DNA of 36,106 bases from Maribacter polysiphoniae (lineage in GTDB: Bacteria; Bacteroidota; Bacteroidia; Flavobacteriales; Flavobacteriaceae): the NCBI RefSeq assembly GCF_003148665.1, contig NZ_QGGQ01000013.1:1-36106 (forward strand), written 5' to 3'. The translations under genes were made by a program, and so were the position numbers. Numbering within the stretch: position 1 is the first letter of the stretch; every line of letters starts with the position of its first letter. Under the pieces are notes generated by a model. It did not search any database. It saw only the letters and a program-made list of their open reading frames with translations, and was not told the origin of the DNA. Positions 333 through 18,883 of the stretch are shown piece by piece.

Positions 333-406
333 AGCCTTGCCGTAAGCGCATTATCGCCAAAGAACTTGTTCATTACGGTATCAGCAGGGCGTGCCGTGTC
401 CTAAAT

Positions 407-1195
407 ATGAGCAAGAGCGTCTATTATTATAAACCTTTGCCGAAAGACGACACCGAAATAGAGGATGCTTTGCTGCAAAAGACCGAAGAACATTCGGAGG
501 AAGGTTTTTGGAAGGCTTACGATCGTTTGCGCAATGAAGGGAAGCCATGGAACCATAAACGGGTCCATCGTATCTATAAGGCCCTTGGGCTGCCATTGAG
601 AAGAAAGGTGAAGAAACGTTTGCCCGCAAGGGTGAAAGAGCCCTTAGAGGTACCTGATGGACTTAACCACACTTGGAGTATGGACTTTGTGACCGATGTC
701 CTGGAAAACAAGAGACGCTTCAGGTCGTTCAACGTCATCGATGATTTTAATCGAGAAGCACTTCATATAGAAGTCGACTTTTCCTTGACCAGCAATCGCA
801 TTGTCTGGGTACTGAACCACCTTATCAATAAAAAAGGAAAGCCAAAGAGGATCCGCATGGACAACGGCCCGGAGTTCATAGCCCATATAACGAACGATTG
901 GAGCCAGATGCACGGGATAGAGTTCAAATATATCCAACCGGGCAAGCCGACCCAAAATGCTTATGTGGAAAGGTTCAATGGAAGCTATAGACGTGGGGTG
1001 CTGAACAAATATATCTTTGAAAACCTAGACCAAGTAAGGGAACAGACACAGATCTGGATGAACGATTATAACCATCATAGGCCCCACGATGCCTTGGGTA
1101 AAATACCGCCCGTAAAATACGCGGAACTTAATTCTTTTGGGGCTAGCCCCAAAAGAATTAAAAACAATAACTTTAATGAAGTTTTAGAAAACTAA
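407..1195 (+). CDS. IS3-family transposase OrfB (DDE integrase domain)
   Basis: This is the catalytic part of the IS3 transposase, with a retroviral-integrase fold. The three acidic residues are visible: Asp in WSMDFV, Asp in RMDNGPEF and Glu in AYVERFNGS, the last two at the 35-residue spacing of DDE(35)K enzymes. The listed start (407) is the first ATG in this frame, but the frame is open back to the slippery site at 320-326. The real product is therefore probably an OrfAB fusion of roughly 376 residues. An N-terminal HTH_21-like segment ([10 protein letters not shown] ... [18 protein letters not shown]) precedes the rve domain. No disruption is seen. Confidence 0.93.
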
Positions 1196-1274: not shown

Positions 1275-2513
1275 TTATACCACTTCAACCATTACTTTAT
1301 TATCAATACCTGAAAATAAAAACCGATTATCATGAGTAGAGGATCTAAATAGTTTTAGATTTCTTTGCGATTCGTTTTTCAGATATAAAAATTCGAAGAC
1401 AATTGTTTTCAAAAATTCATTTTCAGCAGTACCGTAATTTATTTCAACAAAATCTTCGTTTTGATAATCTTCCGTAATTTCAAATAATGTATATCGAAAT
1501 TTTTCGATAGTCTTGTCTGGTTTGTTTTTTAGTTTATAGGTTATTCTGTGAAGTTTTTCATTCACATTCTTATCTCTCAAAAATTGTTTGAATTTGAAGA
1601 ATAATGCAATCGCCAAAGCAAGTACTTGGGCGATAAGGGATTTGGAATCATAAAGTATGTGATACTCAAAATCATATTTTTTTGAGCCCCATCTTACCTT
1701 GTAATCGAAATACCCTTTTGAAAAATCGAATATCTTTAGTTTTTGTTCAATGCACCATGCTATCAATTTCATTATAGTTACCGATCCCAAATGGAATTTT
1801 GAGTAGTCAATGTCAAAAACGGTGATGGCGTCAAAAAGAATTTCTTCAGAGAAGTAGCATAAGGTTACGCCAATAGGTAGGTTTCCATTATAAATAACAA
1901 AAAGGCCAGCTTTCTTTTCCAAAATCATCGGGTATGCTACTTCATGATAGAAATCCCACTCTTCTTTTTCTAAATTATTGTTCGTAACCTGTTTCTCATC
2001 GAATCTTTTGGTCAGTAACGCATTAAACGAGGCGAAAATAGATTCATACTCGTCCTTTGATATTTCACCATGGAACATTTTATAATTGATATCAAAGCAC
2101 GATTCCAATTTTCTTTTATACTTATTAAGTTTATATCGGCTACTTTTTTTAAACGTACCCACCATATATTCATTTACATCCCTATATGATTCCAGATCAA
2201 TCAAGAACCCTGGATATTGCTGTATTTGATATCTTTTAATCCTGTTTTTGGGCAATTCTGCTGTAGTGAAATATGTGGGGACATCATAGATCAATACAAC
2301 TTTTCCGACTATTTCTTCGACATCCGAATTTTCAATGGTATAAGAAATTCCCTTGGTATGTGTTTTTCCATAATTTATATAAAGTGGCAAGAATTGATGC
2401 TTTTCAAAGAAAAGGGTTTTTAAGAAACCAAAACGGGTAGCAGAAACCGATGGACTAAAATGTTTTGACCAAATGGTTGAAAACGTATCTGAAGTAAACG
2501 GGTTACTTATCAT
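1275..2513 (-). CDS. GNAT-fold acyl/aminoacyltransferase (FemAB/CelD-BcsL-like)
   Basis: A 412-residue soluble protein of the FemAB-like GNAT superfamily (Acetyltransf_6 / BioF2 type). The core signature is residues 105-290: IDLESYRDVNEYM, a basic SSRYKLNKYKRKLE helix, and the second GNAT fold with LFVIYNGNLPIGVTLCY followed by FHLGSVTIMKLIAWCIEQ and FDFSKG. In the family these enzymes transfer acyl or aminoacyl groups to amino sugars, peptidoglycan or exopolysaccharide. The start codon overlaps the stop of the upstream FemAB-like gene by 4 bp (ATGA), so the two are translationally coupled. It lies at the end of the carrier-protein cassette and may be a terminal transferase. Donor and acceptor cannot be read from the sequence. 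The C-terminal 120 residues are not recognised. Confidence 0.75.
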   Translation of the reverse strand: MISNPFTSDTFSTIWSKHFSPSVSATRFGFLKTLFFEKHQFLPLYINYGKTHTKGISYTIENSDVEEIVGKVVLIYDVPTYFTTAELPKNRIKRYQIQQYPGFLIDLESYRDVNEYMVGTFKKSSRYKLNKYKRKLESCFDINYKMFHGEISKDEYESIFASFNALLTKRFDEKQVTNNNLEKEEWDFYHEVAYPMILEKKAGLFVIYNGNLPIGVTLCYFSEEILFDAITVFDIDYSKFHLGSVTIMKLIAWCIEQKLKIFDFSKGYFDYKVRWGSKKYDFEYHILYDSKSLIAQVLALAIALFFKFKQFLRDKNVNEKLHRITYKLKNKPDKTIEKFRYTLFEITEDYQNEDFVEINYGTAENEFLKTIVFEFLYLKNESQRNLKLFRSSTHDNRFLFSGIDNKVMVEVV

Positions 2514-3577
2514 AGATTAATCGCTTTAAGCTCATTTGAATTACATCGATAAAAAGGGAAATATTTTGTATAAGCTTTAAATCGCAAGGAAGAACTTTCC
2601 TGACCTATTACCTGAGTAACCAAATCGTCGTAAACCTTCTGATTCACCACATATTTCCATAATTCAAAGTCTTTGTAATCTTTAGAGAATTTAGATTTAA
2701 AATGAAATAGCGAATCTTCCTGACCACCGACCCCACCACCTAAATTCAGATATTTGTATCCTTCCTGTGTCGCCCTAATTCTCATTTCATCAATAATCAA
2801 TTTGATCGCGTTCAAGGCCAGGTATTCTTCTTTCGCTCCAGAAAGGTGATATTGTACTATTTTGTTTTTTTTAATGAACATAGCTCCCCCAATGATCTTT
2901 TTGGACTCATCATGGGTTGCCAACAATATTTCTGTTTCAAAGTCTTTGGTTTTCAGTAAATCGACAAAATATTTCTTGGAGAAAAAGTATGATTTCTTTG
3001 CATTTACACGTTTCATGTTCTCATAATACATTTCAATGAAAATGTCTAGATCTTCCGGTCCCTCGGCTAACCGTAGACCACACTGTCTTCTTGCTTTATT
3101 GATATAGGTGCGCAATCTTTTGTCATAGGCTGATTTTTGGGTATCCAGATCTTTCGTGAGGTCAATATATATAACTTTCCCTGACATTGAAAGATCACCT
3201 AATCCTGTAAGTACGGAATTTTGATGTTCAACAAAAGGATTTAATCGGGAAAAAACCGAAATGATTTTTAATTCCTGGAATATCCTATTTAGCTCTTCTT
3301 TAAAAACCGAATTATCAAAATCAGTTGGGATATTCTTAATTGTGGGGCCTGAATAGCCATAAACAGAGGTTGCATCAAAGAAAGGAGTTCCCTCAATTTT
3401 GCGTAGTAATAATGGCAAAGATATCGTTTTATCGCTCTCTGAATATGTGATTAATACAGGTAACTCCTCTTTGTTTTTTGATAAATGATGATAGTCGTAG
3501 GTGTGATAGAAATCAGAATTTTTGGAAGATCTTATTAAAGGACACCAATCATTCTTTTTTTTAATAATTTTAATCAT
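2510..3577 (-). CDS. FemAB-like aminoacyl/acyltransferase (GNAT fold), copy 1
   Basis: A 355-residue FemA/FemB-like protein with two tandem GNAT folds. Recognisable segments are DFYHTYDYHHLSK near residue 22, DATSVYGYSGP near 69, the basic helix KRLRTYINKARRQ near 153, YYENMKRVNAKKSYFF near 184 and YLNLGGGVGGQEDSLFHFKSKFS near 278. FemAB proteins take aminoacyl groups from tRNA; related Bacteroidota proteins in polysaccharide loci are thought to modify sugars. Here an adenylating enzyme and two carrier proteins lie just upstream, so a carrier-bound donor is an attractive inference. It overlaps the next gene by 4 bp. A clear paralogue with the same motifs in the same order is at 9755-10786. 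Confidence 0.8.
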   Translation of the reverse strand: MIKIIKKKNDWCPLIRSSKNSDFYHTYDYHHLSKNKEELPVLITYSESDKTISLPLLLRKIEGTPFFDATSVYGYSGPTIKNIPTDFDNSVFKEELNRIFQELKIISVFSRLNPFVEHQNSVLTGLGDLSMSGKVIYIDLTKDLDTQKSAYDKRLRTYINKARRQCGLRLAEGPEDLDIFIEMYYENMKRVNAKKSYFFSKKYFVDLLKTKDFETEILLATHDESKKIIGGAMFIKKNKIVQYHLSGAKEEYLALNAIKLIIDEMRIRATQEGYKYLNLGGGVGGQEDSLFHFKSKFSKDYKDFELWKYVVNQKVYDDLVTQVIGQESSSLRFKAYTKYFPFYRCNSNELKAINL

Positions 3578-3678
3578 AGTGTACCTATGTAGCCTTTGAA
3601 GCTTAGCTCTTTTTGTAACCTGACCCGAACTAGGGAAAAGGCCACAGCTTCTCTTGAATGGCTATTAAATTGTAAACA

Positions 3679-4335
3679 TTAATTAACTTTCGGAATGGCC
3701 ATCACCTTTTCTTTAAACCTATAGAAAACCGTAGTGTCATCTTTTACATTTTTGTCAACGATCATACCTGCTTGGATAAGATTATTGTTACCCACCTCAA
3801 TACCTGGAATTACCAATGATCTTAGACCAAAATAGTTGTTATTTCCTACTTTGACAGATCCAGCAACGCCTGCAACGGAAAAAAAGTTGTTGTCCCCCAC
3901 CACACAATCATGACTGATAAAACAATACGATGTAAGAAAATTATAATTACCAATGGTCGCATGTTTCTCGAGAATACAGAATGGAAAAACTATATTACCC
4001 TCACCTATATCAAGGTCTTCCGGCATAACTACACTGTGATGGATGAAACTTCCGATTTTTACTTTTTTATCCAATAGTGTTTTGATTATCTTCTCTCGAA
4101 TACCAATATCCATTATTGCAATCAAGACCTCTTCATCTTCCTTGGGGGTAAATGAATCAATATTACTTAAAAGTGGTGCTTTGTAATTATATTTTTCCCA
4201 TTTCTCTTTCGAGTCATCAATATATCCAACTATTTTGATTTGTTGATCGACTCCTACTTTTGAATTATGATCTTCAATATAAAAAGTTACTTCAGCGCCT
4301 GCTCCACCTGCTCCTAGAATAATAACGTTTCTCAT
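3679..4335 (-). CDS. NeuD/PglD-type sugar O/N-acyltransferase (left-handed beta-helix)
   Basis: About 218 residues from the preferred start at 4335, where MRNVIILGAGGAGAEV gives the N-terminal Rossmann-like motif expected for this family. An in-frame ATG at 4371 would add 12 unlikely residues. Residues 90-205 carry hexapeptide repeats (IGEGNIVFPFCILEKHATIGNYNFLTSY, VGDNNFFSVAGVAGSVKVGNNNYFGLRSLVIPGIEVGNNNLI), which form a left-handed beta-helix. A His in FISHDCVVGD is the probable catalytic base. Family members (PglD, NeuD, PerB) acetylate amino sugars with acetyl-CoA. It follows the second carrier protein by 132 bp and precedes the FemAB-like gene by 101 bp. The substrate is probably an amino sugar of this polysaccharide. 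Confidence 0.85.
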   Translation of the reverse strand: MRNVIILGAGGAGAEVTFYIEDHNSKVGVDQQIKIVGYIDDSKEKWEKYNYKAPLLSNIDSFTPKEDEEVLIAIMDIGIREKIIKTLLDKKVKIGSFIHHSVVMPEDLDIGEGNIVFPFCILEKHATIGNYNFLTSYCFISHDCVVGDNNFFSVAGVAGSVKVGNNNYFGLRSLVIPGIEVGNNNLIQAGMIVDKNVKDDTTVFYRFKEKVMAIPKVN

Positions 4336-4467
4336 AATTTTTTTTTTAGTTGTACCGTTAGTTAAGCACAAGTATATATGTATTTATTGAAATACAAGTA
4401 TTTACGTAATTTTTAATTTAACTAAAATCTAGTATAAAGCGATCGATGCTATATTCGTTCACTTAGA

Positions 4468-4683
4468 TTACATTTTACTTTCAATTAGCTCCTTCAGCTC
4501 CAAAATGGTACCTGAGCCCTCAATTTCCCCTGCTGACAAGGCAACGCCGTATTCCGCATCGCAAATCGCGATAATCGATAATATGGTCAATGAATCCCAA
4601 GCCTCGAACGATTCAAGCTCATCGCTAAGTTCTACGGTTTCTTCTTCAAGGATTTCAGCAATCGATTCTATAAAATTTTCCAT
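4468..4683 (-). CDS. Acyl/peptidyl carrier protein 2
   Basis: A 71-residue acidic four-helix carrier protein. Ser31 in EAWDSLTILSII is the predicted phosphopantetheine attachment site; the canonical DSL triad is intact. The helix II/III pattern (CDAEYGVALSAGEI) is that of stand-alone carrier proteins. It follows the KAS III gene by 3 bp, so the two are very likely co-translated. With carrier protein 1 it gives the cassette two separate acyl docking proteins, one perhaps for an activated starter and one for the acceptor or extender. No phosphopantetheinyl transferase is encoded in this window, so the host enzyme would be needed. Confidence 0.9.
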   Translation of the reverse strand: MENFIESIAEILEEETVELSDELESFEAWDSLTILSIIAICDAEYGVALSAGEIEGSGTILELKELIESKM

Positions 4684-4686
4684 AGT

Positions 4687-5757
4687 TTAATTATCGTAAT
4701 CAATAGTTTCACAAAAATCCAAATTGCCCATTTCCAAAAGAAATGACGCCCAACCCAACCCGGCTCCAAACCCGGCTAAACAAATTAAATATGAATTCGT
4801 CAATAGTTTTTCTCCTAAATTGTACGTAATCGTGGTTGGAATGGAAACACCACTGGCGTTGCCAAAATTCTCGACAATATTGTTCGGCATTTTAGTATAA
4901 GGCACTCCCATTTTATCAGCAAGCTTTTTCAACATAAATTTATTGGGCTGATGAAACATATAATAATCTACTTCGTCCTTGTTCTTACTTGCCTTATCCA
5001 GTAAGTTCTCGATCATGGGAGGAACTTCTTTTTGAACAAAAGTAAAAATGTCATCTCCTTTCATTACTAAATGATCCAAAGACCTTGAATTTCCACTTTT
5101 GTCGGTTTTTAGTTCTGCTGTCTCTGGCGTGGATGGCATCTTAAAACCGCCTGCTGGAATTATCAGGGATTCAGCACCTTTTCCATCAACATTTACGGTG
5201 CCATATATGACATTGTTAGAGGGGTTGTTTTCAACAATGGTGATGGCCGCGGCATCACCGGTAATTGGCCTGCTACCCCGATCCTTAACAGAAACTTTAC
5301 GGCTCATGATGTCGGCATTTAATACAACCACTTTGTTCACCTCATCCTGTTCCAATAGCATAAATGCCTGGTTTAATCCGACGGGATATCCTGAACAGGC
5401 TTGATTGATGTCCAGACAGATCATATCCCGTTTTAGATCCAGCTTGCCTTGGATGATATGACTGGTTGCTGGCACAAAATGATCAGGGGATTGTGTTACT
5501 AAGACCATGGCATCAACATCTTCCTTTTTTAAAAGATTGTTGTCAAAAAGATAATTCAAGCCGTAAATGCATAAATCCGACACCGTTGTCCCTTCTTTAA
5601 CCACTCTACGTTTACCATAACCCATAATCAACTTGAGCTTCATGGATTGACCTCTTGAGAAGTCATAATTATCTATTTCGTCGTCAAAGTTTACCTCGTT
5701 TTCAGGTAAAACAGTTAGGATCCCCGTAATTTTTTTATTGTGAAATTTTAGGTTCAT
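4687..5757 (-). CDS. 3-oxoacyl-ACP synthase III-like enzyme (KAS III / FabH family)
   Basis: 356 residues with the thiolase fold. The KAS III triad is complete: Cys121 in DINQACSGYPVGL, His269 in YYMFHQPNKF and Asn300 in ENFGNASGVSIP. The glycine-rich C-terminal strand (FGAGLGWASFLLEMG) is also present. FabH enzymes condense an acyl-CoA starter with malonyl-ACP. Related KAS III-like proteins instead transfer acyl groups to sugars or amines (the CerJ type, which as I recall has lost the Asn). The retained Asn here favours true condensation. The start overlaps the stop of carrier protein 1 by 4 bp, and carrier protein 2 follows after 3 bp. It is not in a housekeeping fab operon. No ketoreductase or dehydratase lies nearby, so any beta-keto product would stay as it is or be reduced by host FabG. 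Confidence 0.88.
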   Translation of the reverse strand: MNLKFHNKKITGILTVLPENEVNFDDEIDNYDFSRGQSMKLKLIMGYGKRRVVKEGTTVSDLCIYGLNYLFDNNLLKKEDVDAMVLVTQSPDHFVPATSHIIQGKLDLKRDMICLDINQACSGYPVGLNQAFMLLEQDEVNKVVVLNADIMSRKVSVKDRGSRPITGDAAAITIVENNPSNNVIYGTVNVDGKGAESLIIPAGGFKMPSTPETAELKTDKSGNSRSLDHLVMKGDDIFTFVQKEVPPMIENLLDKASKNKDEVDYYMFHQPNKFMLKKLADKMGVPYTKMPNNIVENFGNASGVSIPTTITYNLGEKLLTNSYLICLAGFGAGLGWASFLLEMGNLDFCETIDYDN

Positions 5758-5987
5758 TCCGTAACACCATTATTAATTAGTAATCGATATATACTATCGA
5801 CATTTGAGAAATTTTCTGGTAAAATTTCTGTTCCATCAATTGATATTCCATATTCTTCGTCTAGCGAAGCTACTAAACTTACAATATCAAACGAATCCAG
5901 CATACCTTCTTCTATAAAATTATTGGATGCGGCAAAGTCGAACTCAGGTCTAATTTCCGTTAAAAAGTCTATTATTTTTTTCTTCAA
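5754..5987 (-). CDS. Acyl/peptidyl carrier protein 1
   Basis: A 77-residue carrier protein with Ser32 in GMLDSFDIVSLVASL as the predicted phosphopantetheine site. The residue after Ser is Phe, as often in DltC-like and NRPS-associated stand-alone carriers, not the Leu of fatty-acid ACPs. It lies 50 bp after the adenylating enzyme and overlaps KAS III by 4 bp. That position suggests it receives the adenylated substrate and passes it to KAS III or a transferase. This order is inference from layout; loading has not been shown. Confidence 0.9.
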   Translation of the reverse strand: MKKKIIDFLTEIRPEFDFAASNNFIEEGMLDSFDIVSLVASLDEEYGISIDGTEILPENFSNVDSIYRLLINNGVTE

Positions 5988-6037
5988 AATAAATTAAATA
6001 TAATTGATTAATAAAGCTACCATTCTTTTGACAACTT

Positions 6038-7558
6038 TTATGTATTATTGATTTTTTTGTTTAATAAAGCCCTGTCTATTTTCCCAGTTGTTGATTTAGG
6101 TAAAATGTCCATTTTAATATATCTGGTCGGAATCATATGTTTAGACAATACATTCGATAATCTTGATCTGAAATCCTTAACGGATATTTCATTTTCAGAC
6201 TCGTAGATTAAAACAATTTCATTCTTCGCTTTGTCAAAAAATACGCCTGCATTTATGGTGTCAAAAACACTTAAAATGTAATGTTCTATTTCACCTAAAT
6301 CAATTCTATAACCAGATAGTTTTATTTGAAAATCCTTTCTACCTATGTAAATATATTCACCTTTTTCATTTAGTAAGGCAATATCACCGGTTCTGTATAT
6401 TCTTTCAGGAACTGATTTGTTCAATGGGTTTTGAACAAAAACAGCGTTCGTTTTTTCTAAATTATTCCAATAACCAAGTGCAAGTGAAGATCCCCTAACA
6501 CATAGCTCACCTTTCTCTCCAACCTTACAAAGTTCATCCTTTTCATTCAAGACTATAATGTCGGTATTTCTACATGGCTTACCAATAGGTAGGGATTCAT
6601 TTTCATTGAAGGTTTCATCAACAATATGGCAAACACATGTTCCTGTTATTTCAGTAGGACCATACATATTTCCATAAACGACATTTTTATCTAAATTCTT
6701 TATCCAATAACCCAAGTGTTTGGGGGGCATTACCTCACCACCAAATAACACCTTTTTTACCGTTGGGATTTTAATCGAACCAAGAAGCTTAAGATTTGCG
6801 ATATTCACCAAAACCGATGGAACCCAAAATATAAAATTAATATTATTCTCATTTATATAATCCAACAGGGTAGCGGGAAACATGAACTTCTGCTCAGGAA
6901 TAATAAAAAGTGTTGCCCCTTTAAAAATCATTAGATAGATATCTAATGTGGACATGTCAAATATGAAAGGGGTCTGATTACCAATTTTTTCTTTTTCAGT
7001 AATATCAAAAGTGTCAGCTACCCAATTTATATAATCGATAATGGATAAATGTGAAATAACCACTCCTTTTGGTACACCCGTAGAGCCAGAGGTATGCAAT
7101 ATATATGCGGGGTCAGTATCTATGCATTTTAGATAATTAAAACTTTCGTCAACATCCTCCTCTTGATCTAATTCATCAAGGTTGATCACCTCAATATCTA
7201 AATCGCATTTTTTTATATTCGCAATGAACCTATCATTGGTTATAATGCATGACGGGTTTAATGCTTTTAAGATTGCTTGAATCCTTGGGATGGGATTTTT
7301 CGTATCTAATGGCGTATAGCAATTACCACTGTACATCGTACCTAAGAATGAAGCAATGGCATCATTGGTTTTAGGTAAATAAATAGCAACAGGACTATTT
7401 ATTGAACTGTTGATTTTGGTTATTTGGGTTGCAATAAGTTTTGCTTTACATCTTAACTCGTTAAAAGTCAATTGGGAGGTACCGTCGACAAGTGCTAATT
7501 TATCAGGAAATGAATCAACAGTATTTTCAAAATATTCAATTAAATTAATCTTTATCAT
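6038..7558 (-). CDS. Amino-acid adenylation enzyme (DltA / NRPS A-domain-like), free-standing
   Basis: A 506-residue ANL-superfamily enzyme that would activate a carboxylic acid as acyl-AMP and load it on a carrier protein. Core motifs are A3 (HTSGSTGVPKG, residues 155-165), A4 with Asp201 in FDMSTLDIY, A5 (NMYGPTEITG, 297-306), A7 (YRTGD, 388-392), A8 (GRKDFQIKLSGYRIDLGEIE, 406-425) and A10 with Lys493 in STTGKIDR. The Asp that binds the alpha-amino group is present, so an amino acid is likely. The FDMSTLDIY and LFGGEVMPP segments resemble DltA. The DltA Cys thought to select D-alanine is Gly273 here, so a different substrate is possible. There is no fused carrier or condensation domain; carrier protein 1 follows after 50 bp. 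Confidence 0.9.
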   Translation of the reverse strand: MIKINLIEYFENTVDSFPDKLALVDGTSQLTFNELRCKAKLIATQITKINSSINSPVAIYLPKTNDAIASFLGTMYSGNCYTPLDTKNPIPRIQAILKALNPSCIITNDRFIANIKKCDLDIEVINLDELDQEEDVDESFNYLKCIDTDPAYILHTSGSTGVPKGVVISHLSIIDYINWVADTFDITEKEKIGNQTPFIFDMSTLDIYLMIFKGATLFIIPEQKFMFPATLLDYINENNINFIFWVPSVLVNIANLKLLGSIKIPTVKKVLFGGEVMPPKHLGYWIKNLDKNVVYGNMYGPTEITGTCVCHIVDETFNENESLPIGKPCRNTDIIVLNEKDELCKVGEKGELCVRGSSLALGYWNNLEKTNAVFVQNPLNKSVPERIYRTGDIALLNEKGEYIYIGRKDFQIKLSGYRIDLGEIEHYILSVFDTINAGVFFDKAKNEIVLIYESENEISVKDFRSRLSNVLSKHMIPTRYIKMDILPKSTTGKIDRALLNKKINNT

Positions 7559-8064: not shown

Positions 8065-8550
8065 TTATTTACTATACTGTAAATACTTTTCCGGGATAGG
8101 GAATTCTGGTGTTGCACGTTGCCAATACATACTAAGAATCCACCATCTCTCTTTATAGTAAGCTAATTGAATGCTGTGTACATTTTTGACATAAGACTTG
8201 CCAGCTTCCATATCTTCAAGGCTATGAAAAGATTCGCAAGTACTTATGCAATGGGCAATATTGCCATACCTTTCTTCAACTCTACCTATTTCCCTCTCAT
8301 AAAAGCCAGAAGTTCGTTTGGTTTCCATCCAATGTCCAATCCTACTTATGTATTCGTCAGGTGATAAAAACTGAGGTCTTAAATTACCATTCGCATCATT
8401 TTCATAACTGATTAATTTTCCATCAGGATGAAATAAAAACCGATAGAATTCCCAATCACGGGCTTCTCCTGGTTCACCACCTATACAAGCATAGGAGGTT
8501 TTAATAATATCATCCATGGTCTGAACACTTTTTAAATACTCTTCTTTCAT
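8065..8550 (-). CDS. SnoaL/NTF2-like protein of unknown function
   Basis: 161 residues that look like a cone-shaped alpha+beta NTF2-like fold (SnoaL / DUF4440 type): an N-terminal helix (EEYLKSVQTMDDIIKTSYACI), the strand region WEFYRFLFHPDGKLISY, a helix SPDEYISRIGHWMET, and a C-terminal sheet (AHCISTCESFHSLED ... VHSIQLAYYKERWWILSMYWQRA). Such proteins range from enzymes to ligand binders, and the sequence does not show which. It has no signal peptide. It lies between the MITE-like element and a long gene-free region and may be unrelated to polysaccharide synthesis. The family call is by fold pattern only. Confidence 0.7.
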   Translation of the reverse strand: MKEEYLKSVQTMDDIIKTSYACIGGEPGEARDWEFYRFLFHPDGKLISYENDANGNLRPQFLSPDEYISRIGHWMETKRTSGFYEREIGRVEERYGNIAHCISTCESFHSLEDMEAGKSYVKNVHSIQLAYYKERWWILSMYWQRATPEFPIPEKYLQYSK

Positions 8551-9754: not shown

Positions 9755-10786
9755 TTATTGGTTAACACGATAACGGGGAAAATACTGCAATGTTTCATCG
9801 GAATAATGAATATCATTTCGCTGTTGAACCAAATCTTCGTAGATAGTTGGATTTACTTTATATTTCCAAACTTTGAATGGTAATGTATATTTGGAAAACC
9901 CTGATTTAAAATAGAATAATGAATCTTCCTTAGCACCAACACCACCGCCAAGATTCAAATAACTGTAGTGCTCCTGCTTTCCTCTAATCCGCATTTCATC
10001 TATGAGTAATTTAATAGGATTTAAATCGAGATATCGTTGACTGGCTCCGGAAAGATGATATTGGATTATCTTATTTTTCTTTATGAACATGGCCCCTCCG
10101 GCAACATCACCGGTCTTTATGCTAATGGCGAGTAATACCTCAGTCTCGAAATCTGAACTGTTGATTAAATCCAGGAAATACTTTTTGTCAAAGAAGTACG
10201 CCTTGTTGGCTTTTACCCGCCTCATATTTTCATAGTACAATTCAATAAACGAATCCAAATCAGCAGGTATATCGGCATTTTTTATTTTGTAAATAGTTCT
10301 GGATTTGTTGATATAAGTCCTAAGTCTCCTGTTATAGAGTTTCCATTGCTTATCAATTGTTTCATCCAGGTCTATATAGACCACGCTCCCGAGCGATTCC
10401 GTATTGCCCAGTTTAAGCAAACAACTTTCTTGGTATGGTATAAATGCGTTTAATCTGGAAAAGACTGAAATAATTTTTTGTTCTTTAAAACACTGATTCA
10501 ATTCTTTTTGAAATAAATTGATGTTAAAATCAGAGGGTGTGTCATTGGTAATGGGGCCGGGATACCCATAAACTGAAGTAGCATCTTTATATATCGAAAG
10601 ATGTATCTTTCTGAATAGCAAGGGTAAAACAATAGATTTGCCATTTTCGGAATAGTGGATTAAAACAGGTTCCTCTCCATTAGCCTTGGCTGCGTGATGG
10701 TAGTCGTAGGTATGGTAAAAATCAGCGAAATCGCATTTTTTTACTAGATTGTCCCAAATTTCCTTCTCCCTTATGATTTCAATCAT
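9755..10786 (-). CDS. FemAB-like aminoacyl/acyltransferase (GNAT fold), copy 2
   Basis: 343 residues, clearly paralogous to 2510-3577. Shared blocks in the same order are FYHTYDYHH, DATSVYGYPGP, ISVFSRLN, RRLRTYINKSR, ELYYENMRRVKANKAYFF, AGGAMFIKKNKIIQYHLSGA, LIDEMRIRGKQE and YLNLGGGVGAKEDSLFYFKSGFS. By eye roughly half or more of the positions are identical. It should have the same chemistry as copy 1 with a different acceptor or donor. It is separated from the rest of the acyl cassette by about 1.2 kb without genes, the SnoaL-like gene and the MITE-like element. It is the next gene after the phosphoglycosyl transferase at 11041-11646. A candidate -7 box lies 34-41 bp upstream. Confidence 0.8.
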   Translation of the reverse strand: MIEIIREKEIWDNLVKKCDFADFYHTYDYHHAAKANGEEPVLIHYSENGKSIVLPLLFRKIHLSIYKDATSVYGYPGPITNDTPSDFNINLFQKELNQCFKEQKIISVFSRLNAFIPYQESCLLKLGNTESLGSVVYIDLDETIDKQWKLYNRRLRTYINKSRTIYKIKNADIPADLDSFIELYYENMRRVKANKAYFFDKKYFLDLINSSDFETEVLLAISIKTGDVAGGAMFIKKNKIIQYHLSGASQRYLDLNPIKLLIDEMRIRGKQEHYSYLNLGGGVGAKEDSLFYFKSGFSKYTLPFKVWKYKVNPTIYEDLVQQRNDIHYSDETLQYFPRYRVNQ

Positions 10787-13899: not shown

Positions 13900-15114
13900 T
13901 CAATTTAAGGTGGCGATAGCCTTAATAATTGTAGTATAAGCTTTGTTAGGTTGTAAGTTTGCCTTCATATATTCATAACCATTTTTACCAAGTTGTTCCC
14001 TAAGTTCTTTACTTTCATATAGCTTAACTAATTTTTCTTTTAACTCCTGTTTATTACCTGCCTCAGCCCATAATCCAGAATTGGTTTCCTCCAACATTTT
14101 TCCGAAATCCGTTTGAAGGTCTAAGGAGGCTAGCACAGGCTTTTTTGCCCCATAATAGGACAATACCTTTGACGGAAAATTGGGAATGGTAAAATCCTCA
14201 CTTAGCGAAATCAAACCAATATCAGCTGCTCTTAACAGTTGGTAATAATCTCTCTTGGGAATTGAATTTTTGAAAATCATGTTTGTCATTTTATTGGTTT
14301 TCACCATGTTGGCTATTTTTCCCTTTTCGGTACCATTACCAATAATATAAAAAACCAAATCTTGAATTTCAGAACAGGATTTTGCCAATTCCACTATGTT
14401 TTCCAACTTTTGGGGCCTACCAATATTTCCACCAAAAATGACTATAAACTTATCACTTAGCCCATACTTTGATTTTATTGACCCAACATCCCCATTAACA
14501 TCAAAATTAGGTAGACGTTCCCAATTTGGAAGTAGATGAAGCTTGTTCATGTCTAAATAAGGATTATGCTTTTTTACATACTCTACATTTGCTGGGGACA
14601 TGCATCCTATACTATCAGATTTCTCATATAATTTGATTTCCTTTTTTCTGAAATAGGAATGAATTAACCCATTTGTCTTCATCATTTTAAGATCCACTGC
14701 ATTTTGCGGAAAAATGTCCCTTAAAATTAAATAAAGCTTTCCTTGTGATTTTTTCTTTATCCATAATCCAACATCAATCAAGGTTATTGGCGGGGTAGGC
14801 AAAAGTATCAAGTCAAAATCAAGCGGAATCTTATTCTTTTTCAGTACATTTTTATATTGATATGGTAGCATTAGATTGGCTATTCCTTTTTGCAATAGTC
14901 CAACATTGAATAATTTATTGGTCTTCACCCTAAGTACCTTTACACCGGCTTCTATTCTGAGGCCAATTTTGGATTCGTCCAAGGCCGGAGCCAGCACCAA
15001 TATATCATGGCCTTTATGGTGAAATTCCTGTACCAAATCTGTCCAAAGAGTATTACCCTTTTCAGCATTACTGAATTGCAATGCAAGAAATATTATCTTT
15101 TTTACTTCGACCAT
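13900..15114 (-). CDS. wbuB: WbuB-type GT4 glycosyltransferase (probable L-FucNAc transferase)
   Basis: 404 residues, GT-B fold, glycosyltransferase family 4. The N-terminal domain starts KIIFLALQFSNAEKGNTLWTDLVQEFHHKGHDI. The linker DIFPQNAVDLKMMKTNGLIHSYFRKKE is characteristic of the WbuB/WcaI-like group. The donor domain begins KFIVIFGGNIGRPQKLENIVELA, and the acidic motif region is ISLSEDFTIPNFPSKVLSYYGAKKPVLA. WbuB homologues regularly follow fnlABC and transfer L-FucNAc; here it overlaps fnlC by 13 bp. The function is therefore an inference from both family and context. Confidence 0.85.
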   Translation of the reverse strand: MVEVKKIIFLALQFSNAEKGNTLWTDLVQEFHHKGHDILVLAPALDESKIGLRIEAGVKVLRVKTNKLFNVGLLQKGIANLMLPYQYKNVLKKNKIPLDFDLILLPTPPITLIDVGLWIKKKSQGKLYLILRDIFPQNAVDLKMMKTNGLIHSYFRKKEIKLYEKSDSIGCMSPANVEYVKKHNPYLDMNKLHLLPNWERLPNFDVNGDVGSIKSKYGLSDKFIVIFGGNIGRPQKLENIVELAKSCSEIQDLVFYIIGNGTEKGKIANMVKTNKMTNMIFKNSIPKRDYYQLLRAADIGLISLSEDFTIPNFPSKVLSYYGAKKPVLASLDLQTDFGKMLEETNSGLWAEAGNKQELKEKLVKLYESKELREQLGKNGYEYMKANLQPNKAYTTIIKAIATLN

Positions 15115-16235
15115 ACTACTCTGTTAATATAATCAACATAAGAGATAATAATTCGAACTACTTTTTCACTCACATTGGGCATTGAGTAATCACTGACCGG
15201 CCTAAAATTCCGATTCGGATTTCTTTGCTGTACTTCTAAAGCGGTTAACGCTTGTAATATCCGCTCTGGATTCATACCAACCATCATTACGGAGGCCTCT
15301 TCCATGGCTTCCGGGCGTTCATGTGCCTCTCTAATATTCAAGGCCCTAAAATTTAGAATTGAGGATTCTTCCGAGATTGTACCACTATCAGATAATACTG
15401 CAAACGAATTATATTGTAATGCATTATAGTCAGAAAAACCTAAGGGTTTTAAAAATTGAATATTTTTATGTGCTTTGATTTTTTTGGCATCCAACATGTT
15501 TCTTGTTCGTGGATGCGTTGAAACAATTACTGGGTAATCATACTTTTCGGCAATCTGGTTCATGGAAGAAATAAGTCCCTCAAAGTTTTTAGGATTGCTT
15601 ATGTTTTCTTCCCTATGGGAAGAAACAACGAAAAATTTTCCTTTCTTTAGGTTTAGTTTTTCAAGGACCTCGGAAGCTTCGATTTTTTGTTTGAATTTGT
15701 ACAGAACTTCGAACATAGGGCTTCCGGTCTTGATGATACGATCAGCAGGCAAACCTTCCCTTAAAAGATATTCACGGGCGATATCGCTATAGGTAAGATT
15801 AACATCGGCCACGTGGTCCACTATTTTTCTGTTGGTTTCCTCAGGTACACGTTGGTCAAAGCATCTATTCCCAGCTTCCATATGAAAAACAGGAATTTTT
15901 CGTTTTTTCGCAGGAATGGCACATAAGCAAGAATTGGTATCTCCTAAAACCAAGAAGGCATCGGGATTTATCTCCTCTAATACAGGATCAATTTTAATTA
16001 AAATATTTCCAACCGTTTCCGTGGCATTTTTACCAGCTGCGTTTAGAAAATAATCCGGCTTACGAATGCCAAGATCGTCAAAGAATATTTCATTAAGTTC
16101 GTAGTCGTAGTTTTGTCCTGTGTGCACCAAAGTATGGTCAATGGCATCATTGGCATCCAATGCGTTCAATACACAAGCAAGACGAATTATCTCGGGTCGG
16201 GTGCCTACTACAGTTAATACTTTTAGTTTTTTCAA
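15102..16235 (-). CDS. fnlC: UDP-HexNAc 2-epimerase, UDP-L-FucNAc synthesis (FnlC/WbjD)
   Basis: 377 residues, GT-B-like fold of non-hydrolysing UDP-GlcNAc 2-epimerases. It shows VVGTRPEIIRLACVL (residues 9-23), HTGQNYDYELNEIFF, VLGDTNSCL, HMEAGNRCFDQRVPEETNRK, SSHREEN and the SDSGTISEESSIL loop. The NYDYELNEIFFDDLGIRKPDYFL segment and position after fnlB identify the FnlC/WbjD branch, which converts UDP-N-acetyl-L-pneumosamine to UDP-N-acetyl-L-fucosamine, instead of WecB. It lies 26 bp after fnlB and overlaps wbuB. Confidence 0.92.
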   Translation of the reverse strand: MKKLKVLTVVGTRPEIIRLACVLNALDANDAIDHTLVHTGQNYDYELNEIFFDDLGIRKPDYFLNAAGKNATETVGNILIKIDPVLEEINPDAFLVLGDTNSCLCAIPAKKRKIPVFHMEAGNRCFDQRVPEETNRKIVDHVADVNLTYSDIAREYLLREGLPADRIIKTGSPMFEVLYKFKQKIEASEVLEKLNLKKGKFFVVSSHREENISNPKNFEGLISSMNQIAEKYDYPVIVSTHPRTRNMLDAKKIKAHKNIQFLKPLGFSDYNALQYNSFAVLSDSGTISEESSILNFRALNIREAHERPEAMEEASVMMVGMNPERILQALTALEVQQRNPNRNFRPVSDYSMPNVSEKVVRIIISYVDYINRVVWSK

Positions 16236-16261
16236 TGTAATGCTATTATGATTGGTTAAAT

Positions 16262-17398
16262 TTAAACATCTTCAAAATAGGTGTCTGCATCTTCAGGGTC
16301 ATAGGGTTCATTTATCCAAAATAAAGTGATCAATTCCTTATCCCCGATATTCTTAATGTTATGCGTATGCCAAATGGGCATATCAACATATGCCGGTTTC
16401 TTACCATCCAAATAGTAATCTATCACTTTATCAGTACCTATTTTCCGTAACTGGATTAACGCCTTACCACTGATTACTGCAAAACGTTCTGCTTTTCTTG
16501 TGTGAAAATGGTTGCCTCTTGTTATTCCAGGGACTGTTGTGGAGTACGAAAATTGCCCACTGGTTTGAGTACGTGCAATTTCTACAAAACTTCCACGGTT
16601 ATCGGTATGCTTGGTGTATTTAACAGGGTAATGGCTTTCGGGTACATAACATCGGAAAGTGTTGAACAATGCTTTTTCAAAGGTATCCTCCAAGTTGGGA
16701 AAGACTCCATTCTCCATGTAGTTTTTCTTATAACCAAACAATAGGGACAGGATTTCCGAAACCTTCTTCGTGTAGGTTGGGGCAATATCTACCTTATAGC
16801 TGTTTATGCCAATCTCGGTTGCATTCGCCTTATGATGCATCACAGCTATAAAAACCTGGACCAATTCATTGATGTATATGAGGCCTACCTCACCATCATT
16901 GATAATGGTCGGTTCTTCATTACGGGCCACTTTATGGCAAAATGTAGCTACCACCGAATTATAATTTGGCTTTCCGAAAGGACCAAAGACATTGGGAATC
17001 GTCAATGAAGAGAATTCCCCTCCATTTTTGGCAGCCCAATCCATAAATAATTGTTTTCCTTCCTTCTTGGACTTTCCATATAGATTGTCACGTTCTTCCT
17101 GAGAGGAAGAAGAAAATAAAATGTGGGGCCGGACATCCCGAGTCGTGCAGGCCTGCAGTAGTTTAGAAACTAATTCCAAGTTGGTGTCGTATATGACTTG
17201 AGGGTTTTCATGCCTGTTCATTGCAGCGAGGTGCACAATTATATCGCATTGTGCCACAAAATTTTCCAATTGTCCACTTTCAGTGAAGAAAGATCTTTCA
17301 AATGGGATAAGGACCACGGAGTCGTCCAATGAAAGGGTAGTGTAGAGGTGGTTACCCACAAAACCAGCTTGTCCGGTTATACCGATTTTTTTCTTCAT
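16262..17398 (-). CDS. fnlB: UDP-4-keto-6-deoxy-HexNAc reductase/epimerase (FnlB/WbjC/CapF)
   Basis: 378 residues with two domains. The N-terminal SDR domain (1-245) has GITGQAGFVGNHLY and the Tyr107-x3-Lys111 pair in DNLYGKSKKEGK. The C-terminal cupin domain (255-375) has RGSFVEIARTQTSGQFSYS, RGNHFHTRKAERFAVISG and the WHTHNIKNIG metal region. In CapF the cupin epimerises C3 and the SDR domain reduces C4, giving UDP-N-acetyl-L-pneumosamine. Length and both domains are complete. It lies between the cupin gene and fnlC. Confidence 0.93.
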   Translation of the reverse strand: MKKKIGITGQAGFVGNHLYTTLSLDDSVVLIPFERSFFTESGQLENFVAQCDIIVHLAAMNRHENPQVIYDTNLELVSKLLQACTTRDVRPHILFSSSSQEERDNLYGKSKKEGKQLFMDWAAKNGGEFSSLTIPNVFGPFGKPNYNSVVATFCHKVARNEEPTIINDGEVGLIYINELVQVFIAVMHHKANATEIGINSYKVDIAPTYTKKVSEILSLLFGYKKNYMENGVFPNLEDTFEKALFNTFRCYVPESHYPVKYTKHTDNRGSFVEIARTQTSGQFSYSTTVPGITRGNHFHTRKAERFAVISGKALIQLRKIGTDKVIDYYLDGKKPAYVDMPIWHTHNIKNIGDKELITLFWINEPYDPEDADTYFEDV

Positions 17399-17449
17399 CT
17401 AAGCTTGATATTTCTAATTTGCAACAAAGAACAACAATTTAATTTGCAA

Positions 17450-17878
17450 TTACCATTTAGTATCCCATTTTTCGATAGGGTAACGAAAATCATCGTTTTT
17501 AGATTCATCTAAGCTGAAATTCGAAAACACTTGTAATGCGGAATTTTCCTCAATAGCCTTGAATCCTGTTGCATAACCGCCAGATATTTCCAATACCATG
17601 GGATTTTTAGCCGCTAAGACAAATCTTTTGATTTTTAATAGGGGTGAGGGATGCTCGAAATTATCCACTTGTACTAGATGTACTGCGAAAGACCCTGTAT
17701 GGCAGTAAAACCATTTCATCTCTTTTTTATGGGCTTGCCAAGCTCTAATGGTATTAACATTGCTAGGTCTAATTTCGTAGAAACGAACAATCGACGCCAT
17801 ATCAAATGCGTTGAAAAAGTCAAGTTTGCCACGTGCATCTGTAAAATTAGTCCCTTGTATTAGCTTGTGGTAAACCAT
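17450..17878 (-). CDS. Cupin-fold sugar isomerase/epimerase-like protein
   Basis: 142 residues with an RmlC-like jelly-roll: DARGKLDFFNAFDMASIVRFYEIRP, the central RAWQAHKKEMKWFYCHTGSFAVHLVQ strands, and a C-terminal NPMVLEISGGYATGFKAIEENSALQVFSNF pattern typical of dTDP-4-keto-sugar 3,5-epimerase relatives. It lies exactly between fnlA and fnlB, starting directly against the fnlA stop codon. Similar small cupins sit at this place in other Bacteroidota fnl clusters as far as I recall. It may assist the C3/C5 epimerisation of the FnlA product. The His-Asp pair of true RmlC enzymes is not clear, so the exact reaction is unknown. Confidence 0.75.
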   Translation of the reverse strand: MVYHKLIQGTNFTDARGKLDFFNAFDMASIVRFYEIRPSNVNTIRAWQAHKKEMKWFYCHTGSFAVHLVQVDNFEHPSPLLKIKRFVLAAKNPMVLEISGGYATGFKAIEENSALQVFSNFSLDESKNDDFRYPIEKWDTKW

Positions 17879-18883
17879 TTAAAGATTTTCTTTAATATAA
17901 TCAAGATTTAAAAGGGTTTGTTTTAATTCTTCATTAGTAAGTTGTATGGTATTATGGGAGTGGTAATCTTCAATGACACTGGTTTTAGTCTTACCTTCAG
18001 AGAAATAACGGCTGTAATTCAAATCCCTATTATCTGCAGGAATCCTATAGAATTCCCCCATATCCTCGGCTTTTTGCATTTCTTCACGGGTACATAGGGT
18101 TTCGTAAAGTTTCTCACCATGTCTTGTGCCAATGACCTTGATTTCGTTATCCGCTTTAAAAATACTTTTTATTGCATCTGCCAAGTCTCCAATGGTACTG
18201 GCAGGAGCTTTGTTGACAAAGAGATCCCCTTGGTTCCCATGCTTAAAGGCAAAAAGTACCAAATCCACGGCATCTTCCAAAGACATTAAAAAGCGCGTCA
18301 TATTTGGATCTGTAACAGTAAGTGGTAGTTTTTCTTCTATTTGCTTTACAAATAAAGGAATCACAGATCCTCTAGAAGCCATGACGTTGCCGTATCGGGT
18401 TAAACAAACAATAGTATTGTCATCCTGAATATTCCGTGAAGCGGCTACCGCCACTTTTTCCATTAAGGCCTTGCTTATACCCATGGCATTGATGGGGTAA
18501 GCGGCTTTGTCCGTACTTAAACAAATAATCCGTTTTACTCCATTAGCAACAGCTGCATCAATGGTATTTTGGGTACCAAAGACATTGGTTTTAGCTGCTT
18601 CTATGGGAAAAAACTCACAAGAAGGAACTTGTTTTAATGCAGCAGCATGAAATACATAATCTACCCCGCGCATGGCTTTTGCAATGCTATCGTAATCCCT
18701 AACATCACCTATGTAAAACTTTACCTTATCATTTTTGAGTTGGTTACGCATATCGTCTTGCTTTTTTTCATCTCGAGAAAAAATGCGAATTTGCTTAATA
18801 TTGGTTTCTAAGAACCGATTTAACACCGCGTTCCCAAAAGAACCAGTGCCGCCGGTTATTAATAATGTTTTGCCTTTGAACAT
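17879..18883 (-). CDS. fnlA: UDP-GlcNAc 4,6-dehydratase/5-epimerase (FnlA/WbjB/CapE)
   Basis: 334 residues of the short, soluble polysaccharide_synt_2 SDR family. It shows TGGTGSFGNAVL (10-21), STDKAAYPINAMGISK (123-138), and RYGNVMASRGSVIPLF. The TDK residues and a Met134-x3-Lys138 pair, where most SDRs have Tyr-x3-Lys, match the CapE/FnlA branch and not PseB-like proteins. It would convert UDP-GlcNAc to the 4-keto-6-deoxy-L-arabino-hexulose, the first step to UDP-L-FucNAc. The C-terminal DNRDLNYSRYFSEG segment is also typical. It starts 4 bp after the upstream glycosyltransferase stop and abuts the cupin gene. Confidence 0.93.
   Translation of the reverse strand: MFKGKTLLITGGTGSFGNAVLNRFLETNIKQIRIFSRDEKKQDDMRNQLKNDKVKFYIGDVRDYDSIAKAMRGVDYVFHAAALKQVPSCEFFPIEAAKTNVFGTQNTIDAAVANGVKRIICLSTDKAAYPINAMGISKALMEKVAVAASRNIQDDNTIVCLTRYGNVMASRGSVIPLFVKQIEEKLPLTVTDPNMTRFLMSLEDAVDLVLFAFKHGNQGDLFVNKAPASTIGDLADAIKSIFKADNEIKVIGTRHGEKLYETLCTREEMQKAEDMGEFYRIPADNRDLNYSRYFSEGKTKTSVIEDYHSHNTIQLTNEELKQTLLNLDYIKENL

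What the first reader, a model, noticed from the sequence alone, without database searches (positions are those of the whole stretch)
1275..7558. Carrier-protein acyl-decoration cassette inside a polysaccharide locus
Seven genes on one strand encode an amino-acid adenylating enzyme, two stand-alone carrier proteins with intact Ser sites, a KAS III with complete Cys-His-Asn triad, a NeuD-type acyltransferase and two FemAB/GNAT-fold transferases. ATGA overlaps and a 3-bp gap couple ligase-side and transfer-side genes. Families are recognised from motifs. The proposed pathway is inference: activate an amino acid, load it on a carrier, optionally extend it by one condensation, then transfer it to an amino sugar. 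It would be a hybrid of Dlt, NRPS and Fab chemistry serving glycan modification. I do not recall a described system with this exact gene set.
Basis: partly seen in the sequence, partly recalled or inferred. Interest (0 to 1): 0.78.

Follow-up and report, generated by a model that had tools for sequence, protein, structure and literature searches.

The report
Thioester assembly line decorating a polysaccharide
A bacterium's surface-polysaccharide locus carries a small production line that probably activates an amino acid, passes it between two carrier proteins through a condensing enzyme and attaches the product to an amino sugar; related bacteria keep the line but swap the enzyme that feeds it.

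Summary
The gene set is real: ligase (LIG), ACP1, KAS III, ACP2 and a NeuD/PglD-type acyltransferase in order on one strand, then two FemAB/GNAT-fold genes. The unit is widespread but uncommon: KAS relatives occur in several phyla, partly in MAGs. In sampled family genomes every ligase sits beside a KAS (7 of 7); the two KAS loci without it carry a FkbH gene and carrier. Three more relatives carry an ACP/ligase/Fe-ADH/LuxE-LuxC set. Best reading: exchangeable loaders charge a first carrier, KAS III extends the starter on ACP2, NeuD acylates UDP-QuiNAc4N. Whether KAS condenses or only transfers is unsettled: the window's subgroup has no ketoreductase or N-capping gene in the cassette (0 of 14 loci). 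Closest published case found: Flavobacterium psychrophilum wfpC-G. New variant of a known kind. The FemAB genes look like neighbours (matches in 9 of 34 relatives), not core.

The parts
6038..7558 (-). LIG: stand-alone amino-acid adenylating ligase, presumed loader of ACP1; specificity residues read as DMLFLGMGTK
   Evidence: Pfam AMP-binding; NCBIfam AA-adenyl-dom 333.3 bits over cut-off 317.4; code alignment (code positions recalled)
5754..5987 (-). ACP1: loader-side carrier protein, Ser32 in LDSFD
   Evidence: PP-binding; DltC-like at weak score; Ser kept in all 24 ACP1-like ORFs aligned with it
4687..5757 (-). KAS III of a distinct clade; Cys121-His269-Asn300
   Evidence: trees
4468..4683 (-). 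ACP2: second carrier protein, Ser31 in WDSLT
   Evidence: PP-binding; Ser kept in all 31 ACP2-like ORFs aligned with it; an ACP2 match within 120 bp after KAS in 29 of 34 relatives (counted)
3679..4335 (-). NeuD/PglD-type hexapeptide N-acyltransferase
   Evidence: PglD_N and Hexapep over cut-off; TIGR03570 129.7 bits, under cut-off 160.8; PDB relatives include UDP-N-acetylbacillosamine N-acetyltransferase, VioB, perosamine N-acetyltransferase
8065..8550 (-). NTF2/SnoaL-like fold protein, constant partner in the window's ligase subgroup; role unknown
   Evidence: AlphaFold best model mean pLDDT 86.6, but the five models range 86.6 to 59.4; Foldseek top hit SgcJ E 2.8e-6, TM (query) 0.61, many NTF2-like folds; present in 8 of 8 assessable loci with the same ligase code, window included
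2510..3577 (-). FemAB/GNAT-fold transferase, neighbour rather than core
   Evidence: Pfam FemAB 34.5 bits over cut-off 24; similar gene at 9755-10786
1275..2513 (-). GNAT-fold transferase resembling FemX, MprF and ATE1; neighbour rather than core
   Evidence: Acetyltransf_6 over cut-off; model mean pLDDT 77.2, residues 1-59 under 50; Foldseek MprF/FemX/ATE1, E down to 1.7e-7 but TM (query) only 0.24-0.38
9755..10786 (-). Second FemAB-like gene, polysaccharide-locus neighbour
   Evidence: weak FemAB/Acetyltransf_6 under cut-off; recurs in related loci
15102..18883 (-). Context: WecB-like epimerase and FnlA-type genes (UDP-L-FucNAc supply, inferred)
   Evidence: TIGR00236 252.2 over cut-off 210.15; TIGR04130 551.9 bits, under cut-off 730
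26113..27549 (-). Context: Wzx-like flippase
   Evidence: NF007773 205.8 bits, under cut-off 273

Best explanation
This is a thiotemplated acyl assembly line for one amino sugar of a surface polysaccharide. LIG adenylates an amino acid (which one is unknown) and loads it on ACP1. KAS III takes the starter from ACP1 onto its Cys and condenses it with malonyl on ACP2, giving an acyl group two carbons longer on ACP2. The NeuD/PglD-type enzyme moves the acyl from ACP2 to the 4-amino group of UDP-QuiNAc4N, made by the PglF- and PglE-like enzymes encoded just past the window. The NTF2-like protein may act on the beta-keto intermediate. In relatives a GNAT or formyltransferase would cap the amine before condensation and a FabG-like SDR reduce the ketone. 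Shown by sequence: gene order, active-site residues, co-occurrence, loader swaps, sugar genes. Inferred: every catalytic step, substrate, malonyl use, acceptor. That KAS extends rather than only transfers I put at about 0.55; that the set makes and transfers an acyl group for a glycan amino sugar, about 0.8.
For: Ligase over the amino-acid adenylation cut-off, Asp kept. Cys-His-Asn kept in window plus 27 relatives. Co-occurrence: ligase in 7 of 395 family genomes, each time beside KAS; KAS in 9 of 397; the two without a ligase match, G258 and G377, have FkbH + ACP (L043, L024). Of 31 loci with at least 1.6 kb upstream: ligase 25, ACP/ligase/Fe-ADH/LuxE-LuxC 3, FkbH 2, another KAS 1 (counted). 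The other loaders sit among ligase loci on the KAS tree, 2 loader changes, branch support 90/96. Just before ACP1 a GNAT lies in 6 and a formyltransferase in 3 of 25 ligase loci, as expected if a free gamma-amine would cyclise after condensation (chemical reasoning). FabG-like SDR within 2.5 kb downstream of KAS in 13 of 34 relatives. L043, KAS 71% identical: FkbH-ACP-MaoC-SDR-KAS-ACP2-NeuD. PglE/PglF-like genes at C13:38.8-41.9 kb. wfp precedent on the same sugar.
Against: In the window's subgroup (14 ligase loci with neither a cap gene before ACP1 nor an SDR within 2.5 kb after KAS; window, the rest) a free amine would be expected to form a lactam after condensation; so extension is least certain exactly here. 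The FabH CoA-sandwich Trp (recalled position) is missing in the 32 cassette rows that cover it, but the first KAS of wfp-like clusters lacks it too, and the DR motif that holds the partner Arg (recalled) is mostly kept, so this does not prove a carrier-bound starter. L043's MaoC and SDR sit upstream of KAS and could act on glyceryl-ACP instead. The ligase code names no substrate. No ACP2 or NeuD match follows KAS in L019, none of ACP1, ACP2 or NeuD was found in L021, L017 has NeuD upstream, and L028, L031, L038 show no transferase match within 3.5 kb downstream. Four loci of 10 kb or more show no glycan marker. G377 is not named, whose unmatched genomes are mostly unlisted; its lack of LIG is seen only around L024.
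Confidence: 0.55

Rival explanations
1. Transacylation: KAS III only hands the starter from its loader carrier to ACP2, the carrier that NeuD recognises, so the sugar receives an unextended aminoacyl (or other starter) group. This is the role I recall being proposed for the KAS III-like CouN2/CloN2 between two carriers in aminocoumarin biosynthesis.
For: Explains why the window subgroup has no ketoreductase or N-cap in the cassette (0 of 14), why loaders swap while KAS-ACP2-NeuD mostly stays, and avoids lactam formation.
Against: The His-Asn pair used for malonyl decarboxylation (recalled) is kept in the window and 27 relatives; ketoreductases follow ACP2 in other members of the same KAS clade; V. 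cholerae's tetronate pathway, as recalled, needs no KAS. The CouN2 analogy is recalled; the paper search for it returned nothing useful.
Confidence: 0.25
2. Convergent line: KAS makes acetoacetyl-ACP2 from acetyl-CoA, while LIG/ACP1 hold an amino acid; an N-acyltransferase joins them and the transferase delivers N-(3-hydroxybutyryl)-aminoacyl. In the window an NTF2-like aldol cyclase could instead give a 3-hydroxy-2,3-dimethyl-5-oxoprolyl group.
For: Both acyl types exist in glycans: N-[(R)-3-hydroxybutyryl]-L-alanyl on 4-amino-4,6-dideoxyglucose, and 3-hydroxy-2,3-dimethyl-5-oxopyrrolidine-2-carboxyl on Qui3N of Plesiomonas shigelloides O54 (PMC3210612, passages). Gives the NTF2-like protein a role and needs no ketoreductase in the window; SDR and GNAT in relatives would fit.
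Against: A formyltransferase takes the GNAT slot in 3 loci, leaving KAS/ACP2 without a partner; FkbH-type starters have no amine to acylate; the FabH Trp for CoA is missing (weak); the aldol-cyclase role is speculation by fold.
Confidence: 0.15
3. The cassette makes a small diffusible or lipid product (natural-product-like) and sits in polysaccharide loci by chance or linkage.
For: L020, L022, L033 and L042 have no glycan marker around them (neighbours scanned).
Against: 21 of 28 long loci have a strong polysaccharide marker against 0 of 20 control stretches; a NeuD match within 3.5 kb downstream of KAS in 22 of 34 relatives, 25 with AAC(3)-like ones (counted); PglE/PglF-like genes in the same locus.
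Confidence: 0.05

Closest known systems
Flavobacterium psychrophilum O-polysaccharide R-group genes wfpC-wfpG (PMC6519341; abstract and passages seen)
   Same: ACP, KAS and PglD homologue predicted by the authors to put an acyl made FAS-style on UDP-D-Qui2NAc4NH2, in a locus with L-FucNAc and pglE/pglF genes
   Different: two KAS genes and a ketoreductase are described there and no ligase in the passages seen; the window has one KAS, two carriers, an amino-acid ligase and an NTF2-like gene, and no ketoreductase in the cassette
Dlt D-alanylation (DltA/DltC)
   Same: stand-alone ligase plus carrier; LIG has full-length similarity to DltA (314 bits) and ACP1 a weak one to DltC
   Different: below both DltA cut-offs; no DltB or DltD among the proteins scanned; KAS III and PglD-type transferase instead
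Aminocoumarin pyrrole-carboxyl transfer, CouN/CloN (recalled)
   Same: ligase, first carrier, KAS III-like protein, second carrier, transfer to a sugar
   Different: antibiotic pathway with an acyl dehydrogenase; no homology test was run here
Vibrio cholerae O1 RfbKLMNO tetronate pathway (recalled)
   Same: ACP, ligase, Fe-alcohol dehydrogenase, LuxE-LuxC fusion for acylating a perosamine; the same domain set precedes KAS in L019, L020, L022
   Different: no KAS III or second carrier as recalled; homology to the Rfb proteins themselves not tested; not the loader in the window
FkbH/FabH-like pairs of tetronate antibiotics (PMC7489565, passages)
   Same: a FabH-like enzyme takes an acyl (glyceryl) bound to a stand-alone ACP, as proposed for L024 and L043
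   Different: there it closes a tetronate ring and releases a polyketide

Membership tests
Amino acid adenylation domain (NRPS A-domain type) | TIGR01733 score over curated cut-off | tested here: met
   333.3 bits against 317.4
Amino acid adenylation domain (NRPS A-domain type) | Asp binding the substrate alpha-amino group | tested here: met
   Asp201 in FDMSTLD, kept in all 24 amino-acid-type ligases aligned, window included (position from recall of the GrsA code)
Dlt D-alanylation system | DltA score over curated cut-off | tested here: not met
   302.4 against 559.85 (TIGR01734) and 314 against 476 (NF003417)
Dlt D-alanylation system | DltB/DltD membrane transfer proteins in the cassette | tested here: not met
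   none among the ten proteins scanned
KAS III (condensing) | Cys-His-Asn triad | tested here: met
   window and 27 relatives; L043 and L051; L041, L042, L044, L045 not looked at for this, L039 frame-broken
KAS III (condensing) | decarboxylative condensation activity | not testable with these tools
   needs purified proteins
NeuD/PglD/VioB N-acyltransferases | TIGR03570 cut-off | tested here: not met
   129.7 against 160.8 bits; so I call it NeuD/PglD-type, not a member by that model
NeuD/PglD/VioB N-acyltransferases | PglD_N domain and hexapeptide repeats | tested here: met
   both over Pfam cut-off; PDB relatives PglD, VioB
wfp-type carrier-protein R-group synthesis | ACP + KAS + PglD homologue with PglE/PglF-like acceptor genes in one locus | tested here: met
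   published set; wfp sequences themselves were not compared
wfp-type carrier-protein R-group synthesis | second KAS and ketoreductase in the cassette | tested here: not met
   none among cassette genes; other KAS III-like genes of the genome are 25-27% identical and on other contigs
FemAB family (gene 2510-3577) | Pfam FemAB over cut-off | tested here: met
   34.5 against 24 bits
FemAB family (gene 1275-2513) | Pfam FemAB over cut-off | tested here: not met
   Acetyltransf_6 over cut-off, ATE_C under cut-off, no FemAB; fold resembles FemX/MprF/ATE1
CouN2/CloN2-type transacylation | acyl hand-over without extension | not testable with these tools
   needs carrier mass spectrometry

The most novel reading that the evidence does not exclude
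A modular, plug-in assembly line for glycan decoration: one KAS III clade with its ACP2 and PglD-type transferase accepts starters from exchangeable loaders (amino-acid ligase, FkbH glyceryl, RfbKLMN-type hydroxyacid), each with its own carrier, and builds C2-extended acyls such as N-capped gamma-amino-beta-hydroxy (statine-like) groups on bacillosamine-type sugars in several phyla. No such sugar substituent appeared in the passages read.
Probability: 0.35. Interest if true: 0.75.

Novelty: new variant of a known kind. Interest (0 to 1): 0.55.

Why it matters
It would show that surface-glycan acyl groups can be built by a hybrid of NRPS-type loading and type II fatty-acid chemistry with exchangeable starter modules, which would explain part of the chemical variety of bacterial surface antigens and let unknown sugar substituents be predicted from gene order. 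The loader swaps also offer a natural set for testing what a KAS III accepts from a carrier protein. It extends the published F. psychrophilum case rather than starting a new principle.

Tried and rejected
Loss of the FabH Trp as proof that KAS does not use CoA: missing in the 32 cassette rows that cover it (L036 lacks that part) but also in the first KAS of wfp-like clusters, so not used as proof. Reading the substrate from the ligase code: DMLFLGMGTK and DNLFLALVDK match no specificity I recall; left open. FemAB genes as the final transferases: not core, since matches occur in only 9 of 34 relatives and stand beside an FkbH cassette too. NTF2-like role: no Pfam or NCBIfam match, one PDB sequence match at E 0.028 to glutathione peroxidase 7, taken as chance; fold only. 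Paper searches; one search gave the wfp paper, another the tetronate precedent, the others no direct precedent for this gene set (0 papers at 5 of 6 terms; 0 papers at 5 of 6 terms). Passages of PMC6309461 and PMC3068675 were looked at and gave no gene-set precedent. These cover only the open PMC library, so absence in print is not shown. Phylum draw at E 1e-80 found only the own genome of 395; class draw at 1e-60 found 6 others of 395, at 34-37% identity, 3 of them with KAS-ACP-KAS-SDR order. The first glycan-context tally counted 24 of 33 loci with any marker; I report 21 of the 28 loci of 10 kb or more with a marker over 60 bits (recount), dropping five loci under 6 kb; L025, L038 and L040 have weak markers only and count as misses; 4 of the 21 (L021, L027, L030, L037) rest on the aminotransferase marker alone. 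The control stretches come from one genome only; the same marker search does find the sugar genes past the window edge.

Full report
What is there. The seven minus-strand genes lie as described, and their families are confirmed by Pfam and NCBIfam. From the 5' end: LIG (6038-7558), ACP1 (5754-5987), KAS III (4687-5757), ACP2 (4468-4683), a NeuD/PglD-type acyltransferase (3679-4335), a FemAB-family gene (2510-3577) and a further GNAT-fold gene (1275-2513). ACP1 and KAS overlap by 4 bp, KAS and ACP2 are 3 bp apart, and the two GNAT-fold genes overlap by 4 bp. Carrier serines and the KAS Cys-His-Asn triad are intact.

(a) A gene at 8065-8550 upstream of LIG has no Pfam or NCBIfam match. An AlphaFold model from 11 aligned sequences (best mean pLDDT 86.6, but the five models range down to 59.4) matches NTF2/SnoaL-like folds. 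It occurs in the window and 8 of 34 relatives (L013, L014, L016, L017, L018, L023, L034, L044), and in 8 of 8 assessable loci whose ligase has the window's code, window included; the ninth such locus, L015, is cut off upstream. (b) The acceptor sugar: the window is G000:C13:1-36106. Past its end lie a DegT aminotransferase at C13:38.8-40.0 kb, whose best solved relatives are 1o61 and 4ztc (named 'aminotransferase' and 'Aminotransferase homolog'; that these are Campylobacter PglE is recalled), and a PseB/FnlA-like dehydratase of 644 aa (PglF-like by length and neighbourhood, my inference) at 40.0-41.9 kb, followed by export- and Wzc-like genes. With FnlA- and WecB-type genes in the window this resembles the sugar set of the F. 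psychrophilum O-antigen locus, UDP-L-FucNAc and UDP-D-Qui2NAc4NH2.

Distribution. One pattern-based scan of the species-genome collection with the KAS protein gave 28 loci: mostly Flavobacteriaceae and other Bacteroidota, plus MAGs filed as Acidobacteria, Gastranaerophilales, Curvibacter and Lachnospiraceae. MAG binning could misplace some of these; the Paenibacillus locus (plasmid record of an isolate) does not have that doubt. The unit is uncommon: KAS at E 1e-60 or better in 9 of 397 sampled family genomes, own included, and at 1e-80 only in the own genome of 395 in a phylum draw. In a tree with wfp-like and housekeeping KAS III, 13 cassette KAS, including those of L028, L033, L038 and L051, form one clade with 100/100 support; Curvibacter's L037 was placed only in the tree.

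Co-occurrence and loader swaps. LIG (E 1e-90) occurs in 7 of 395 family genomes, own included, each time at the KAS locus. Of the 9 genomes with KAS, the two without a LIG match, G258 (listed without a match) and G377 (not among the matches; most unmatched genomes are not listed), have a FkbH gene and a carrier upstream of KAS (L043, L024). Over the 31 loci with at least 1.6 kb upstream, LIG is the loader in 25, an ACP/ligase/Fe-ADH/LuxE-LuxC set in 3 (L019, L020, L022), FkbH in 2, and L033 has another KAS (counted by me). L026, L029, L036 and L039 were dropped because the contig ends there. L031 has both LIG and FkbH. The domain set was scanned in L020 and matched in L019 and L022 by sequence; its likeness to V. 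cholerae RfbKLMN is recalled. On the KAS tree (29 labelled rows) the two other loaders sit in a group of 16 with ligase loci, support 90/96, and 2 loader changes suffice. An ACP2 match follows KAS within 120 bp in 29 of 34 relatives, and a NeuD match within 3.5 kb downstream in 22 of 34, 25 with AAC(3)-like genes (counted). L019 and L021 have neither after KAS.

Tailoring genes. Just before ACP1 there is a GNAT match in 6 of 25 ligase loci (L028, L030, L031, L032, L040, L051; L031 and L051 weak at 35 and 50 bits) and a formyltransferase in 3 (L035, L042, L045; L045 weak at 53 bits). A FabG-like SDR lies within 2.5 kb downstream of KAS in 13 of 34 relatives. Eight of the nine N-cap loci also have an SDR nearby (L042 has none; in L051 it is upstream). 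In the 14 ligase loci of the window's type (window, L013-L018, L021, L023, L025, L027, L034, L041, L044) neither was found. L037 and L038 are the two remaining ligase loci: no cap match in that slot, but SDRs. L043, with a KAS 71% identical to the window's, has MaoC and SDR genes between its loader carrier and KAS.

How it most likely works. LIG is an amino-acid adenylating enzyme by family score and keeps the Asp that holds the amino group. Its 10-residue code does not name a substrate. The conserved trio loader carrier, KAS, second carrier, with loaders that differ chemically but each come with a carrier, suggests that KAS accepts a carrier-bound starter and hands a product to ACP2. The intact His-Asn pair, the reductases in kin and the wfp-like kin favour C-C extension with malonyl. 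N-capping genes in one slot make chemical sense because a free amine at C4 of the new acyl thioester would cyclise. The weak point is the window's own subgroup: no cap and no reductase in the cassette. There the housekeeping FabG, the NTF2-like protein, or plain transacylation must fill the gap. I therefore hold extension at about 0.55 and transacylation at 0.25; the convergent N-(3-hydroxybutyryl)-aminoacyl or oxoprolyl route, whose products are known in other glycans (PMC3210612, passages), at 0.15.

Glycan context. Of the 28 loci of 10 kb or more in the set, 21 hold a polysaccharide marker above 60 bits, 17 without counting the aminotransferase marker (recount); 0 of 20 evenly spaced 20 kb stretches of the window's genome do, while the same search does find the sugar genes past the window. 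The markers come from this window plus two genes of relatives, and the control is one genome, so the contrast is indicative, not exact. L020, L022, L033 and L042 show no marker; of their neighbours scanned only a phosphomannose-isomerase-like gene in L020 is a sugar-precursor type, and L042 has a glycoside hydrolase and a TonB receptor-like gene. A more distant relative on a Parabacteroides distasonis plasmid (KAS 30% identical) lies in an annotated polysaccharide-type locus: flippase, glycosyltransferases, acetyltransferase, two carriers, AMP-binding protein, KAS III, SDR.

FemAB genes. The 1275-2513 protein models as a GNAT-type fold whose best matches are MprF, FemX and ATE1 (TM scores low, 0.24-0.38 by query length). 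FemAB-like matches occur in 9 of 34 relatives, in tandem beside ligase and FkbH cassettes alike, so they are probably polysaccharide-locus neighbours with their own, perhaps aminoacyl-tRNA-dependent, job.

Comparison. The closest published system found is wfpC-G of F. psychrophilum (abstract and passages read), where the authors predict an ACP-bound 3,5-dihydroxyhexanoyl moved by a PglD homologue to UDP-D-Qui2NAc4NH2. The window shares acceptor type, carrier logic and transferase, but starts from an adenylated amino acid on a separate carrier. It is not a Dlt system (DltA cut-offs missed, no DltB/D among the proteins scanned). FabH-like enzymes that take glyceryl-ACP are known from tetronate antibiotics (PMC7489565, passages). 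Verdict: new variant of a known kind.

Noticed in passing
window 66-1195: A transposase-like helix-turn-helix ORF and an integrase-like ORF on the plus strand (IS3-type by eye, from recall) stand at the very start of contig C13 beside the cassette's end; the contig may break at this element.
   Followed up: no
window 28822-29316: A 164-aa integrase-like ORF (by eye), possibly a second insertion-element remnant in the locus.
   Followed up: no
window 11041-11646 and 13090-13698: Two similar sugar-phosphate transferase (WcaJ-like) genes within 2.7 kb, with a VOC/glyoxalase-like gene (11963-12748, by eye) between; the VOC-WcaJ-FemA2 group recurs in L013, L017, L018, L024 and, without FemA2, L034.
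   Followed up: partly
L038:6278-16638: Lachnospiraceae MAG locus with three KAS III, several carriers, two ligases and SDRs in tandem; one KAS has lost His and Asn of the triad.
   Followed up: partly
L062, L063, L067: KAS-ACP-KAS-SDR order in distant genomes of the class, the set published for wfpC-F, with KAS 34-35% identical to the window's.
   Followed up: partly
L029, L032, L033, L035, L040, L045, L051: Metallo-beta-lactamase-fold genes (L029, L032, L035, L040, L045, L051) and AAC(3)-like Antibiotic_NAT genes (L032, L033, L035, L051) accompany several cassettes; roles unknown.
   Followed up: no
window 29480-31225: Lipoprotein-like ORF that looks by eye like a parallel beta-helix protein, inside the polysaccharide locus; not analysed.
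   Followed up: no
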